A DNA stretch of 64,000 bases from Arenibacter certesii DSM 19833 (GTDB lineage: Bacteria > Bacteroidota > Bacteroidia > Flavobacteriales > Flavobacteriaceae). Under the pieces are notes generated by a model, which worked only from the letters and a program-made list of their open reading frames with translations, did no database searches and had not been told where the DNA came from. Positions 22,093-25,616 of this stretch are shown in pieces. The position numbers were made by a program, and so were the translations under genes. Location of the stretch: positions 1 to 64,000 of the forward strand of contig NZ_AUCB01000004.1 in assembly GCF_000429545.1 (NCBI RefSeq), in the 5' to 3' direction. Each line of letters begins with the position of its first letter. Within the stretch, counting starts at the first letter, position 1.

Positions 22093-22476
22093 ATGATTGA
22101 AGTAGTTTGTGCTATAATAGTAAAAGATGACAAAATTCTTATCGCCCAACGAAGTGAAGAAATGAAATTACCTTTAAAATGGGAGTTTCCTGGAGGTAAG
22201 TTAAATGAAGGGGAAGACGAAGAGCAAGCTATTATAAGAGAGATTAAAGAAGAATTAAATGTTGAAATAATTCCTCTTAAAAGATTGTCTTCTAACATTC
22301 ACGATTATGGTTCATTTAAAATAAAATTAACTGCCTACTTATGTGATTTTATAGGAGGTGAAATTGTTCTTTTAGAGCATAAAGATTTCAAATTTGTCAA
22401 ATCTGAGGACTTAATAAATCATGATTTTGCGGAAGCTGACATTCCCTTTATTGAGGAGTTAAAAACACTTGTGTAA
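22093..22476 (+). CDS. Nudix hydrolase, MutT-like
   Basis: 127 residues, the length of a minimal MutT. Nudix proteins hydrolyse nucleoside diphosphates linked to another moiety, such as (deoxy)NTPs including oxidised forms. The Nudix box is complete except for its last glycine: G35-x5-E41-x7-R49-E50-I-K-E53-E54-L55-N56-V57, with the metal-binding REIKEE intact. WEFPGGK just before it is typical of the MutT/CTP-pyrophosphohydrolase group. The stop TAA (22474-22476) overlaps the start of the next gene by one base (TAATG), so the two are translationally coupled. That fixed pairing suggests the hydrolase acts with the helicase rather than as general housekeeping. AT-rich compared with the flanks. 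Confidence 0.93.
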   Translation: MIEVVCAIIVKDDKILIAQRSEEMKLPLKWEFPGGKLNEGEDEEQAIIREIKEELNVEIIPLKRLSSNIHDYGSFKIKLTAYLCDFIGGEIVLLEHKDFKFVKSEDLINHDFAEADIPFIEELKTLV

Positions 22477-25400
22477 TGATTGAAGGCATTTACGAGCAGT
22501 TAATAACTAAGCTAGTCGCTTCCAAACTTCAAAGCCTCGAAATAAATAAATTTTACATTAAGGATTCCGCAATTGATAAAGAAGAAGCGGCACAAGTTTT
22601 GTCCAAACACCTTAATAGTACAATTGGATATGCTCTATCATTAATCAAGGGTGAACACGCAATTGAAAATCAAATTAAAATTGCTAATAAAATTATAGGT
22701 GTTTTAAAAGATGAAATAGATAATGACCTTATTGAAGATGATCTTGTAAAAGCAGAAGGGCGAATTCTAAAAGCTGTATTCGAAAAAACTGATGCCCATT
22801 TTTCTGATTTAGAATTACACTTAAAAGAAATAACCCCATATACAAGACTAACACACAGCGAATTATTTACAGGTGGAAATGTCGGCTTGTCTTTAGAAAG
22901 CGAATTAAAAAAGGAGATTTTGTCTTCAAATCGAGTAGATTTACTCGTATCTTTTATTAAATGGAAAGGAATAATAATTCTTGAAAGAGAACTGAGGGAA
23001 TTTACAGAAAGAGGTGGACGGTTAAGAGTTATCACTACTACATATATGGGTGCTTCAGATTATAAGGCAATCCAATTACTATCAAATCTACCAAATACTG
23101 AAGTTAAAATTTCATATAATACTGGTAACGAAAGATTGCACGCAAAAGCATATTTCTTTTATCGCAATTCAGGGTTTCACACAGGCTATATTGGTTCTTC
23201 AAATTTTTCACGAACTGCATTAACAGATGGTTTGGAATGGAATCTTAAAATTACAACCAAAGAAGTTGGGCACATCATTGACAAATTTCAAAAAACCTTT
23301 GAAGCTTACTGGCAAAATAATGAATTCGAATTATTTGATGACAAAATTCATTCTGACAAATTGATTGAGTCCTTAAGGTCTGGAATAAAGCCACAGCAAG
23401 ATATTAGTAATTTGGCTTTTTTCGACTTAAAACCTTATCCCTACCAAAAAGAAATTTTGGAAACCTTGGACGTTGAACGCACTGTTCATAACCGACATAA
23501 AAATCTTTTAGTAGCAGCTACTGGAACAGGAAAGACTGTTATTTCAGCATTTGATTATAAAAAGTTCAAACAAGAAAATAAATCAGCAAAACTTCTATTT
23601 GTAGCACACAGAAAAGAAATTTTAACCCAGGCTGCTTCAACCTTTCGGGGAGTATTAAAAGACAATAATTTTGGTGAATTATGGGTGGATGGTATGCAAC
23701 CAGATAAATTCGATTTTGTATTTGCATCAGTTCAAACTTTAAAGAATAAAATTGAGGAACTTTCTTTAAGTTCTACATTTTATGACTTTATTATAATTGA
23801 TGAAGTTCATCACATTGCTGCGTCAAGTTATCGTCCCATACTTAATCATTTTAAACCAACAGTTCTTTTAGGGTTAACCGCTACTCCTGAGAGGATGGAT
23901 AATGAAAATATTTTAGAAGATTTTTGTGATAGAATCGCTGCTGAAATACGATTACCCGAAGCTTTAAACAGAAAACTTCTATGTCCATTTCAATACTTTG
24001 GTATTTCAGATAGTATAGATTTATCTAAAGTTAGATGGGAAAATGGACGATATGTGCCAAGCGAGTTAACTAAATTATATTTAGCAAATGACAGACGTGT
24101 GGGTGAGGTGATTAGCAACGTAGATAAATATCTGAGAGATATTAATGATGTAAGAGCTCTCGGCTTCTGTGTGACTATTGAACACGCTAAATATATGGCT
24201 GAAAAATTCACTTTAGCTAATTTAAAAGCTCATTATCTAACAAGTGAAAACTCGAGAGAGAGGGAAGATATAAGAAGAAAGTTGCGAAATAAAGAAATCA
24301 ACTATTTATTCGTTGTTGACATATTTAATGAAGGAGTTGATATTCCTGAAATCGATACCGTGCTGTTTTTAAGGCCCACCGAAAGTTTAACGGTTTTTCT
24401 TCAACAACTAGGTAGAGGACTTAGATTGTCTGACGGCAAAGAATGTTTAACGGTATTAGATTTTGTCGCTAATGCAAGACCAGAATATAATTTTGAAAAT
24501 AAATTTAGGGCGTTAATAGGTAAAACCACAACGCCAGTTCAAAAAGAAATTGAGGACAACTTCCCTCATTTACCATTAGGATGCTCAATTGTTCTCGAAA
24601 AAAAGGCGAAACAAAGTATTCTAGAAAATATTATTGCTGCAACTACTGTAAATAAAAGGCAGCTTATGCAAAAGATTCAGAATTTTGAACATCAAACAAC
24701 TTTACCTCTTACGCTAGCTAATTTTATAGCCTTTAATAATCTTAGTTTGCAGACGATTTATAAAAGAGGCAGTTGGAAAAGGCTTCTTCATCTAGCTGGA
24801 AAACATGAAGATTTTGATAGCCACAACGAGAAAGAAGTCGTTTCTACTATCTTAAGAAAATGGTTGTCGACTAATTCCACTAGTTATTTTCAATTTTTAT
24901 TAAAGCTGGCGAAAGAAAATTTTAAGCCTAACTACAGTTTATTTAATGAGGAAGAAAAAGTTATGCTACTGATGTTGCATTACGATGTTTGGAAAGGTTC
25001 TGAAGGTTTTGAATCAATAAATAAAAGTATTGAAGAAATCGGAGAAAATAGAGTGTTGGTTAAGGAAATTATTGAAGTTTTAGAGATTCTTCTTGATAAT
25101 ATTAGCTTCAAAGAAATAGATGTTGAACTACCATATAAGCAGCCTTTAAAATTACATTCAAGGTATACTAGAGACCAGATTTTAGCAGCTTTTGGGCTTA
25201 GTACATTCAATAAAAAATCTTCTAATAGAGAAGGTGTAGCTGAGAATAAAACACTTAATACCGAAATCCTGTTTATAGACCTCATTAAATCTGAAGAAGA
25301 CTTCTCACCTACCACAATGTATAATGATTACGCAATTAGTGAAACATTATTTCATTGGCAAAGTCAAAATCAAACAAGAGTTGACCATGGAAAAGGTTTA

Positions 25401-25616
25401 ACCTATATTAATCATCAGAAGCTCAACAAAAAGATTCTACTTTTTGTTCGTGAAAAAGCAAAAGACGAGTTTGGAAATACAATGGGTTACGTATTTATAG
25501 GAGAGGGTAATATTCAAGATCATTATGGTTCTAAACCGATAAGTATAAATTGGCATTTAAGTGAGCCTATGCCTCAATATCTATGGAATACATCTGCTAA
25601 AATGGCTGTTGGCTAA
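22476..25616 (+). CDS. PLD-nuclease/superfamily 2 helicase/DUF3427 fusion
   Basis: 1046 residues. Domain order: helical N terminus (1-115); a phospholipase-D-like domain (about 125-290) with the half-motif H222-x-K224 and GSSNFS (240-245), as in PLD-type nucleases; superfamily 2 helicase core with motif I ATGTGKT (348-354), DEVHH (442-446), TAT (468-470), FNEGVDIPEID (617-627) and QQLGRGLR (643-650); and a long C-terminal region (about 700-1046) corresponding to DUF3427. Such proteins are expected to translocate on or remodel nucleic acid and may cut it. Only one HxK half-site is present, so an active nuclease would have to dimerise. Coupled to the Nudix gene by a one-base overlap. Base and codon use are clearly more AT-rich than in neighbours, and the pair is flanked by ordinary single genes, which fits a transferred defence- or repair-type module. 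Confidence 0.9.
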   Translation: MIEGIYEQLITKLVASKLQSLEINKFYIKDSAIDKEEAAQVLSKHLNSTIGYALSLIKGEHAIENQIKIANKIIGVLKDEIDNDLIEDDLVKAEGRILKAVFEKTDAHFSDLELHLKEITPYTRLTHSELFTGGNVGLSLESELKKEILSSNRVDLLVSFIKWKGIIILERELREFTERGGRLRVITTTYMGASDYKAIQLLSNLPNTEVKISYNTGNERLHAKAYFFYRNSGFHTGYIGSSNFSRTALTDGLEWNLKITTKEVGHIIDKFQKTFEAYWQNNEFELFDDKIHSDKLIESLRSGIKPQQDISNLAFFDLKPYPYQKEILETLDVERTVHNRHKNLLVAATGTGKTVISAFDYKKFKQENKSAKLLFVAHRKEILTQAASTFRGVLKDNNFGELWVDGMQPDKFDFVFASVQTLKNKIEELSLSSTFYDFIIIDEVHHIAASSYRPILNHFKPTVLLGLTATPERMDNENILEDFCDRIAAEIRLPEALNRKLLCPFQYFGISDSIDLSKVRWENGRYVPSELTKLYLANDRRVGEVISNVDKYLRDINDVRALGFCVTIEHAKYMAEKFTLANLKAHYLTSENSREREDIRRKLRNKEINYLFVVDIFNEGVDIPEIDTVLFLRPTESLTVFLQQLGRGLRLSDGKECLTVLDFVANARPEYNFENKFRALIGKTTTPVQKEIEDNFPHLPLGCSIVLEKKAKQSILENIIAATTVNKRQLMQKIQNFEHQTTLPLTLANFIAFNNLSLQTIYKRGSWKRLLHLAGKHEDFDSHNEKEVVSTILRKWLSTNSTSYFQFLLKLAKENFKPNYSLFNEEEKVMLLMLHYDVWKGSEGFESINKSIEEIGENRVLVKEIIEVLEILLDNISFKEIDVELPYKQPLKLHSRYTRDQILAAFGLSTFNKKSSNREGVAENKTLNTEILFIDLIKSEEDFSPTTMYNDYAISETLFHWQSQNQTRVDHGKGLTYINHQKLNKKILLFVREKAKDEFGNTMGYVFIGEGNIQDHYGSKPISINWHLSEPMPQYLWNTSAKMAVG

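What the first reader, a model, noticed from the sequence alone, without database searches (positions are those of the whole stretch)
22093..25616. Coupled Nudix hydrolase and PLD-helicase-DUF3427 protein: candidate defence or repair module
A minimal MutT-like Nudix gene overlaps by one base (TAATG) a 1046-residue protein with, in order, a PLD-type half-site (H222-x-K224, GSSNFS), a complete superfamily 2 helicase and a C-terminal DUF3427 region. The pair is visibly more AT-rich than its neighbours, has no functional links to them, and sits between single-gene units. A nucleotide-pool enzyme with a nuclease-helicase suggests that modified or depleted nucleotides are part of the mechanism: the Nudix may clean or hydrolyse dNTPs while the helicase finds damaged or foreign DNA. 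The domains are seen; the joint role is inference. I do not recall a described anti-phage system with exactly this pairing.
Basis: partly seen in the sequence, partly recalled or inferred. Interest (0 to 1): 0.8.

Follow-up and report, generated by a model that had tools for sequence, protein, structure and literature searches.

The report
Modified-DNA restriction enzyme with nucleotide-cleaning partner
Two overlapping genes in a marine bacterium look like a nuclease that destroys DNA carrying modified cytosine plus a small enzyme that probably destroys the free modified-cytosine building blocks, perhaps so that the cell never builds that mark into its own DNA and attacks itself.

Summary
Confirmed: a 127-aa Nudix gene (22093-22476) overlaps by one base a 1046-aa PLD nuclease-SF2 ATPase-DUF3427 gene (22476-25616). 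The large protein is a relative of SauUSI, an ATP-driven type IV restriction enzyme for 5-methyl/5-hydroxymethyl-cytosine DNA: catalytic residues and most reader-pocket residues are kept, and its predicted C-terminal domain matches SRA readers of modified cytosine. The Nudix is NudG-like rather than MutT-like. A relative with measured kinetics (B. fragilis, 3gwy) hydrolyses 5-methyl- and 5-hydroxymethyl-dCTP very efficiently and falls in a clade whose eight other sampled members all adjoin such restriction enzymes. Pairing: 50 of 74 assessable named loci. Best reading: the Nudix keeps C5-modified dCTP out of the cell's own DNA, taking the place of the protective methyltransferase of ordinary systems. 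This is inferred, not shown; starving phages of modified dCTP is the main rival. My searches of open-access papers found none describing the pair.

The parts
22093..22476 (+). Nudix hydrolase, 127 aa, NudG-like (PADLOC PDC-S07); intact Nudix box G35..E41..R49-E50..E53-E54; predicted 5-methyl/5-hydroxymethyl-dCTP pyrophosphatase
   Evidence: substrate inferred from relatives
22476..25616 (+). SauUSI-type modification-dependent (type IV) restriction enzyme, 1046 aa; its start codon overlaps the Nudix stop codon (TAATG)
22476..22832 (+). N-terminal extension (about residues 1-119), mostly helical in the model, shared by the ~1046-aa subfamily and outside the matches to SauUSI
   Evidence: low model confidence, e.g. 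residues 1-6, 25-33, 97-137
22983..23312 (+). PLD-type nuclease domain core, residues 170-279; H222-x-K224 and GSSN (240-243)
   Evidence: 44 of 44 identical at H222, K224, S241, N243
23427..24467 (+). SF2 ATPase/translocase, residues 318-664; Walker K353, DEVH 442-445
25125..25589 (+). SRA-type reader of modified cytosine (within DUF3427), residues 884-1038; F933, Y949, D951, W961 conserved; D951, W961 and F933 align with SauUSI D858, W868 and F841

Best explanation
A two-gene modification-dependent restriction module. Step 1 (inferred from SauUSI, supported here by fold and residues): the large protein dimerises through its PLD domain, finds 5-methyl- or 5-hydroxymethyl-cytosine with its SRA domain, translocates with the SF2 ATPase and cuts the DNA. 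Step 2 (inferred from relatives): the Nudix hydrolyses 5-methyl-dCTP and 5-hydroxymethyl-dCTP to the monophosphates. Step 3 (inferred, the new idea): as no methyltransferase is coupled to the pair, self is defined by absence of the mark; modified nucleotides released from degraded foreign DNA or made by a phage could be re-phosphorylated and built into the chromosome, turning it into a target, and the Nudix closes that loop. It would do for a type IV enzyme what the protective methyltransferase does for a classical system, in reverse: it keeps the mark out.
For: Enzyme: PADLOC mREase_IV 7.5e-230; SauUSI 7clg 4.9e-82 over residues 156-1007; full-length model matches 7clg over 655 residues, model 123-1033, Z 20.7 (rmsd 15.2; XPB helicases tie on Z but cover the ATPase only); the C-terminal part folded alone matches 7clg (Z 13.2, 159 aligned), then SRA-type readers SUVH6, SUVH5, AspBHI, AbaSI, LpnPI, ScoMcrA (Z 8-9). 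D951 and W961 (SauUSI D858, W868) in 44 of 44 aligned proteins, F933 in 43 of 44. Nudix: the profile of 18 members scores 3gwy 3.2e-39 and NudG 2.8e-31 against MutT 4.1e-24; Q5LBB1 (3gwy) has kcat/Km 4.8e6 on 5-Me-dCTP and 4.4e6 on 5-hydroxymethyl-dCTP (PMC5158307) and falls in a clade (ultrafast bootstrap 100) whose other 8 of 8 sampled members adjoin DUF3427 enzymes. Linkage: 50 of 74; 30 of 34 pairs examined overlap by 1 or 4 bases, and distances correlate (r 0.65, 0 of 2000 permutations); Bacteroidota 17 of 38 enzyme loci adjoin a strong Nudix hit. In one case a Nudix gene overlaps a structurally different reader nuclease, SRA-HNH (L187).
Against: No activity was measured here for either protein. 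24 of 74 named relatives have no Nudix found anywhere in the held locus; of 12 plasmid neighbourhoods viewed (of 19 records matched) 2 have a Nudix; in Arenibacter P308M17 (L024) the Nudix is frameshifted beside an intact enzyme, and 2 of the 17 adjacent Bacteroidota hits contain a stop: the Nudix is not strictly needed. McrBC, another 5mC-dependent system, shows no enrichment (12 of 36 genomes against 64 of 213; 1 of 38 loci adjacent, in an operon that also holds a DUF3427 enzyme), so this is no rule for all type IV systems; 1 of 6 SRA loci in Bacteroidota adjoins a Nudix. SauUSI's methyl-contact Tyr831 aligns with a variable position (K925; weak alignment there). The window Nudix is 37% identical to 3gwy and lies in another clade; 3gwy's numerically best substrate is the ribonucleotide 5-Me-CTP (6.7e6, large errors). 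The window Nudix scores below NCBIfam's NudG cut-off (98.1 of 156). Related genomes are not independent samples. No source of 5-methyl-dCTP in this host was shown, and its methyltransferases could not be surveyed.
Confidence: 0.55

Rival explanations
1. Attack on the phage pool: the Nudix destroys 5-hydroxymethyl-dCTP (or 5-methyl-dCTP) that a phage makes to modify its DNA, while the restriction enzyme cuts what has been incorporated; a double hit on one phage strategy rather than self-protection.
Against: Phage kinases could re-phosphorylate the product, a futile cycle (recalled logic, not tested). PADLOC PDC-S07 is only a candidate; the passages read show no phage result for it (a table in PMC11514479 marks tested systems in bold, which the held text does not show). 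Nudix genes of the same profile also occur in housekeeping contexts.
Confidence: 0.25
2. General nucleotide-pool cleaning (8-oxo-dGTP, 2-OH-dATP and the like) that merely travels with a restriction enzyme whose cutting causes DNA damage.
For: E. coli NudG knockouts show more mutations (table in PMC5158307); many strong PDC-S07 genes stand near housekeeping genes.
Against: No linkage to reader-less PLD-SF2 relatives (0 of 24) or to type I HsdR (0 of 126), which also cut DNA; the measured relative prefers C5-modified (d)CTP.
Confidence: 0.1
3. One reading: a damage-finding nuclease-helicase with a sanitising Nudix, not restriction.
For: RadD repair helicase is the best NCBIfam model for the ATPase (120 bits), tied with a type I restriction subunit.
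Against: RadD cut-off is 720 bits; SauUSI-type domain order and a modified-cytosine reader fold; patchy distribution (6 of 18 Arenibacter genomes carry a copy of 71% identity or more); relatives on plasmid records.
Confidence: 0.04
4. The adjacency is a by-product of defence-gene clustering without joint function.
For: 24 of 74 relatives lack the Nudix; PDC-S07 sits elsewhere in several genomes that carry the enzyme.
Against: Overlapping genes in most pairs examined and co-divergence, both gene orders in different Nudix lineages, and co-occurrence in genomes.
Confidence: 0.06

Closest known systems
SauUSI (Staphylococcus aureus type IV restriction enzyme; PDB 7clg; PMC7913695, abstract, outline and passages read)
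   Same: PLD nuclease, SF2 ATPase, helical coupler and SRA reader in the same order; HxK and GSSN motifs; reader residues equivalent to F841, D858, W868 kept
   Different: About 100 extra N-terminal residues; SauUSI Glu126 aligns with a variable position (Y229); methyl-contact Tyr831 not conserved by sequence; paired with a Nudix; specificity unmeasured. For SauUSI a single polypeptide is reported sufficient (PMC3874153, passages)
Bacteroides fragilis Q5LBB1 (PDB 3gwy) and E. coli NudG/Orf135 (PDB 2rrk), 5-methyl-dCTP pyrophosphatases (PMC5158307, passages read)
   Same: Nudix fold and box; second and third best solved relatives by profile, after 5x1x, whose substrate I do not know
   Different: 36-37% identity to the window Nudix; window enzyme unmeasured; genomic neighbours of Q5LBB1 could not be looked up here
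PADLOC PDC-S07 (phage defence candidate, single gene)
   Same: Window Nudix matches over its length, 1.7e-48
   Different: Listed without mechanism and without its restriction partner; the model also matches proteins of E. coli and four other control genomes
McrBC and SRA-HNH (type IV) systems
   Same: Also read 5-methylcytosine (recalled; McrBC in PMC3874153); one operon joins a McrB-like AAA gene, McrC, Nudix and DUF3427 enzyme (L250); one SRA-HNH gene overlaps a Nudix (L187)
   Different: Unrelated nuclease architectures; no enrichment of the Nudix with McrBC

Membership tests
SauUSI-type type IV restriction enzyme | PLD nuclease with HxK and GSSN motif at the N-terminal side | tested here: met
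   H222, K224, S241, N243 identical in 44 of 44; PLDc_2 1.8e-10
SauUSI-type type IV restriction enzyme | SF2 helicase-like ATPase with Walker A/B | tested here: met
   ResIII 1.2e-39, Helicase_C 3e-13; K353, D442, E443 in 44 of 44
SauUSI-type type IV restriction enzyme | C-terminal SRA-fold reader of modified cytosine | tested here: met
   DUF3427 4.8e-30; model pLDDT 81; 7clg Z 13.2, other SRA readers Z 8-9. Foldseek TM-scores are modest (TMq 0.52)
SauUSI-type type IV restriction enzyme | Pocket residues for the flipped modified base | tested here: inconclusive
   F933, D951, W961 kept; equivalent of Tyr831 not conserved in a weak alignment
SauUSI-type type IV restriction enzyme | ATP-dependent cleavage of 5mC/5hmC DNA only | not testable with these tools
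   needs biochemistry
NudG-like C5-modified dCTP pyrophosphatase | Intact Nudix box | tested here: met
   E31-K36, E41, R49, E50, E53, E54 invariant in 18 of 18
NudG-like C5-modified dCTP pyrophosphatase | NCBIfam PRK10546 (NudG-type equivalog) cut-off | tested here: not met
   98.1 bits against 156; it is the best model but not an orthologue call
NudG-like C5-modified dCTP pyrophosphatase | Preference for 5-Me/5-hm-dCTP | not testable with these tools
   measured only for relatives (PMC5158307)
MutT (8-oxo-dGTP diphosphatase) | TIGR00586 cut-off | tested here: not met
   76.7 bits against 97.9
RadD DNA repair helicase | NF053632 cut-off | tested here: not met
   120 bits against 720
PADLOC PDC-S07 | Match to the model over its length | tested here: met
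   residues 1-125 on 6-130 of 135, 1.7e-48; the listing gives no cut-off

The most novel reading that the evidence does not exclude
A restriction system that defines self by keeping a base mark out of the nucleotide pool: a dedicated 5-methyl/5-hydroxymethyl-dCTP pyrophosphatase is the antidote of a modification-dependent nuclease, the mirror image of the protective methyltransferase. The theme may reach further: reader-less sister PLD-SF2 enzymes carry a HIT-family (nucleotide hydrolase/transferase) gene directly downstream instead (10 of 22 assessable Bacillota loci), and some clusters add a MazG-like pyrophosphohydrolase, suggesting that nucleotide hydrolases are recurrent partners of such nucleases.
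Probability: 0.42. Interest if true: 0.86.

Novelty: new variant of a known kind. Interest (0 to 1): 0.72.

Why it matters
Type IV restriction enzymes are usually described as nucleases without a protective partner (recalled). A conserved partner, usually overlapping the nuclease gene and acting on the free form of the very base that the nuclease reads, would explain how a cell can live with such an enzyme when modified nucleotides enter its pool, would give a role to an orphan biochemical activity (5-methyl-dCTP hydrolysis by Nudix enzymes, known in vitro), and can be tested directly with feeding and phage experiments in laboratory strains.

Tried and rejected
Rejected: the MutT/8-oxo reading; RadD or general repair helicase; a universal link of this Nudix with 5mC-reading systems: McrBC in Bacillota shows no enrichment, and SRA-domain loci are rare in the Bacteroidota sample (6 of 296 genomes, one locus adjacent). 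First guesses from ORF lengths that neighbours in L226, L194 and L241 were McrBC were dropped: their start residues look like other genes (my recalled reading, not scanned). Some Nudix genes of non-linked clades proved to sit beside Sua5, 2-oxoglutarate dehydrogenase E1, DUF218, a kinase-like APH or a radical SAM gene (5 neighbours scanned).

A sequence search with the C-terminal 227 residues alone found nothing in the PDB; only the fold search did. Phage-record matches to the large protein (8 records) were not examined further.

Choices that shape the counts: the 140-bit limit for a 'strong' Nudix hit in Bacteroidota was set after seeing the scores, and one 353-aa open frame at 140.2 bits (G194) was left out. 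Of 57 such hits I fetched the surroundings of 39, leaving out 13 already known to adjoin the enzyme and 5 others; of 80 Bacillota hits I fetched 40. Of the 50 named pairs, 34 were used for overlap and co-divergence. In the tree 38 of 122 sequences came through the enzyme search, so their linked label is by construction; a Nudix labelled 'other' may have the enzyme elsewhere in its genome (for example L225, L235, L242 and L258). The short/long split of the 54 Bacillota loci was first made by open-frame length and then checked by Pfam: 21 of 21 full-length short proteins lack DUF3427 (23 of 24 scanned, 2 of these cut by a contig end, and one broken frame, L319, not scanned); 6 of 6 scanned SauUSI-length proteins have it (of 7); the 20 long ones were classed by the profile match reaching its C-terminal end, and 3 fragments were counted with them. 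Using only 27 and 21, the contrast is 11 of 27 against 0 of 21 (p 0.001). The Fisher value printed used 10 of 54 and a wrong control size of 129, and the HSDR_N value used 129 too; the corrected ones are (126 loci, my count from the match column; 14 of them, those on a contig with a Nudix hit, were typed in for distances). The Bacillota Nudix hits (E 1e-35 or better) include a few long, MutY-like open frames such as G390, which raises the background.
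Full report
OBSERVATION. The two genes are as described: Nudix 22093-22476 and a 1046-residue protein 22476-25616, sharing one base (TAATG). Domains, motifs and AT-richness are confirmed. The genome looks like an Arenibacter: the nearest named homologue is in Arenibacter latericius (95% identity over the large protein), with the same neighbours mdh and secDF there and in A. 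amylolyticus. In two Aequorivita species the large protein is 93% and 88% identical, but mdh and secDF were not found in the held loci, which suggests transfer of the pair as a cassette (inference).

WHAT THE LARGE PROTEIN IS. PADLOC calls it mREase_IV (7.5e-230). Its best solved relative is SauUSI, PDB 7clg (4.9e-82, residues 156-1007). SauUSI is a dimeric ATP-dependent type IV enzyme with PLD nuclease, SF2 ATPase, coupler and an SRA target-recognition domain, acting on S5mCNGS where the modified base is 5-methyl- or 5-hydroxymethyl-cytosine (PMC7913695, passages). I folded the C-terminal 212 residues with 43 sequences (pLDDT 81): the best match is SauUSI (Z 13.2, 159 residues aligned, rmsd 7.9), then SUVH6, SUVH5, AspBHI, AbaSI, LpnPI, ScoMcrA and others (Z about 8-9, rmsd 3-4); the first 42 of the 50 listed entries are SRA or SRA-like readers, except two labelled mouse cytoplasmic lattice. 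Foldseek itself gives modest TM-scores (TMq 0.52 or less). The full-length model (pLDDT 74.5) matches 7clg over residues 123-1033 (655 aligned, Z 20.7, rmsd 15.2, so domain placement differs); XPB helicases tie on Z but cover only the ATPase. SauUSI's D858 and W868, which contact the flipped base in the authors' model, align with D951 and W961 (44 of 44 aligned proteins), F841 with F933 (43 of 44); Y831 aligns with a variable position. Nuclease residues H222/K224 and the ATPase residues checked are invariant. The protein therefore has what a modified-cytosine restriction enzyme needs; activity was not tested.

WHAT THE NUDIX IS. Its best NCBIfam model is the pyrimidine (d)NTP diphosphatase (NudG type), below cut-off, ahead of MutT. 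A profile of 18 Nudix proteins beside such enzymes (one beside SRA-HNH) ranks 5x1x, 3gwy and NudG first and MutT eighth. 3gwy (B. fragilis Q5LBB1) was measured: 5-Me-CTP 6.7e6, 5-Me-dCTP 4.8e6 and 5-hydroxymethyl-dCTP 4.4e6 per M per s, with 5-OH-dCTP about 50-fold lower, some values with large errors; the authors name 5-substituted (d)CTP as the likely physiological substrate and give no link to restriction in the passages I read (PMC5158307). In a tree of 122 Nudix sequences 3gwy is in a clade (ultrafast bootstrap 100) whose eight other members all adjoin DUF3427 enzymes; six of these eight were found by the Nudix search, two by the enzyme search. 5x1x groups with two more linked Nudix proteins and one that is not adjacent (support 100). 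The window Nudix lies in a separate clade of 30 linked members (support 75), nearly all of them found through the enzyme. Linked Nudix genes occur in at least six places of the tree, and the label changes 10 times against a mean of 39 (minimum 33) in 200 shuffles.

HOW STRONG IS THE PAIRING. Of 80 named loci found with the large protein, 6 could not be assessed; 50 of the other 74 have a Nudix directly upstream, and in 24 no Nudix was found in the held stretch. Of 34 of the pairs examined, 24 overlap by 4 bases, 6 by one, 1 by 14, and 3 do not overlap. Nudix and enzyme distances correlate (35 pairs, r 0.65, 0 of 2000 permutations). In 296 Bacteroidota genomes the enzyme profile matched 38 loci in 36 genomes; in those genomes 21 Nudix hits over 140 bits were found and 17 adjoin an enzyme locus, 2 of the 17 with a stop inside (my reading of coordinates); genome co-occurrence is 20 of 36 against 34 of 260 (p 5e-8). 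In 249 Bacillota genomes there are 54 enzyme loci and 80 Nudix hits; 11 enzyme loci have a Nudix within 3 kb, 10 on the same strand. On plasmid records the link is weaker: of 12 neighbourhoods viewed, 2 have the Nudix.

THE KEY CONTROL. The 54 Bacillota loci fall into DUF3427-type enzymes (27, plus 3 fragments counted with them) and 24 shorter relatives with the same PLD and ATPase domains; 21 of 21 full-length short proteins lack DUF3427. All 11 adjacencies belong to the DUF3427 type (11 of 30); none to the short type (0 of 24, p 6e-4; 11 of 27 against 0 of 21, p 0.001) and none to 126 type I HsdR loci (p 2e-9). Genome co-occurrence repeats this: 21 of 29 genomes with the DUF3427 type have the Nudix against 55 of 220 without (p 9e-7); short type only 4 of 17, McrBC 12 of 36 and HsdR 33 of 99 show no enrichment. 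In these samples the Nudix follows the DUF3427 reader, not the nuclease engine and not restriction in general. Genomes are related, so the p-values are optimistic. Gene order varies (Nudix before the enzyme in L223, L224 and L250, after it in L255, L260 and L261), which argues for repeated association.

OTHER CONTEXTS. One Bacillota operon reads AAA (McrB-like), McrC, Nudix, DUF3427 enzyme, then two further genes of which one is a Pfam HNH protein (L250). In Bacteroidota G138 a second Nudix overlaps an SRA-HNH endonuclease gene (L187). A Lactiplantibacillus plasmid carries Nudix, DUF3427 enzyme, a MazG-like protein and a GIY-YIG/SLFN-g3 helicase (L306). Mammalian 5-methyl-dCTP hydrolases RS21-C6 and DCTPP1 (named so in PMC10742078) are MazG-like (recalled); a suggestive but single case. 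Reader-less short enzymes instead have a HIT-family gene directly downstream in 10 of 22 assessable loci (the script printed 8 because of a tighter overlap limit).

HOW IT WORKS. Shown: domain make-up, residue conservation, predicted fold, overlap, specific linkage. Inferred: cleavage of 5mC/5hmC DNA; hydrolysis of C5-modified dCTP; self-protection. The self-protection model explains why the link follows the reader domain, why it is absent from type I enzymes, which have their own methyltransferase, and why the protective gene usually comes first in the overlap in Bacteroidota. It does not explain why McrBC lacks the link or why a third of the named relatives do without a Nudix. The attack model (destroying a phage's hydroxymethyl-dCTP) predicts the same linkage and cannot be excluded.

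NOVELTY. I found no paper that joins them: searches SauUSI+Nudix (one paper, unrelated passages), DUF3427 with Nudix/MutT (20 of 409 listed), PDC-S07 (six papers, three opened at passages), Nudix+McrBC (five papers, listing only), Nudix+'type IV restriction' (two, one opened at passages), DUF3427 alone (two papers, passages read, no Nudix partner there), modified-dCTP and defence terms (passages of PMC10742078, PMC12923530 and PMC10250203). Subscription literature, preprints and REBASE were not searched.

Noticed in passing
L286, L287, L289-L292, L311-L314 (Bacillota): Short PLD-SF2 enzymes without DUF3427 have a HIT-family (histidine triad) gene directly downstream, often overlapping: 10 of 22 assessable loci.
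   Followed up: partly
L034:4234-4980 and L037:1651-2634: Two Nudix-less DUF3427 enzymes have an HNH-HIT fusion gene directly upstream; L037 also has MazG-like and SLFN-g3 helicase homologues downstream.
   Followed up: partly
L306:3412-8807 (Lactiplantibacillus plantarum plasmid): Four-gene run Nudix, DUF3427 enzyme, MazG-like, GIY-YIG/SLFN-g3 helicase.
   Followed up: partly
L204:4128-6497 (-): Nudix fused to a SLFN group 3 helicase protein (PADLOC PDC-S41, 8.5e-287), 790 aa, with a HIT gene nearby.
   Followed up: no
L010:1369-4737: A SauUSI-type enzyme from an Arenibacter relative carries a C-terminal Peptidase S24 domain.
   Followed up: no
L308, L309, L317, L323 (Bacillota): Four short PLD-SF2 enzymes carry an HNH_repeat (homing-endonuclease-associated repeat) behind the ATPase, where they lack DUF3427; a possible alternative DNA-binding part.
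   Followed up: no
L024 / L008 (Arenibacter sp. P308M17): Nudix gene frameshifted while the enzyme gene is intact; could be decay or sequencing error.
   Followed up: partly
L303 (Hymenobacter canadensis plasmid): Nudix-DUF3427 pair on a plasmid typed as mobilizable, beside HNH and HIT genes, supporting mobility of the module.
   Followed up: no
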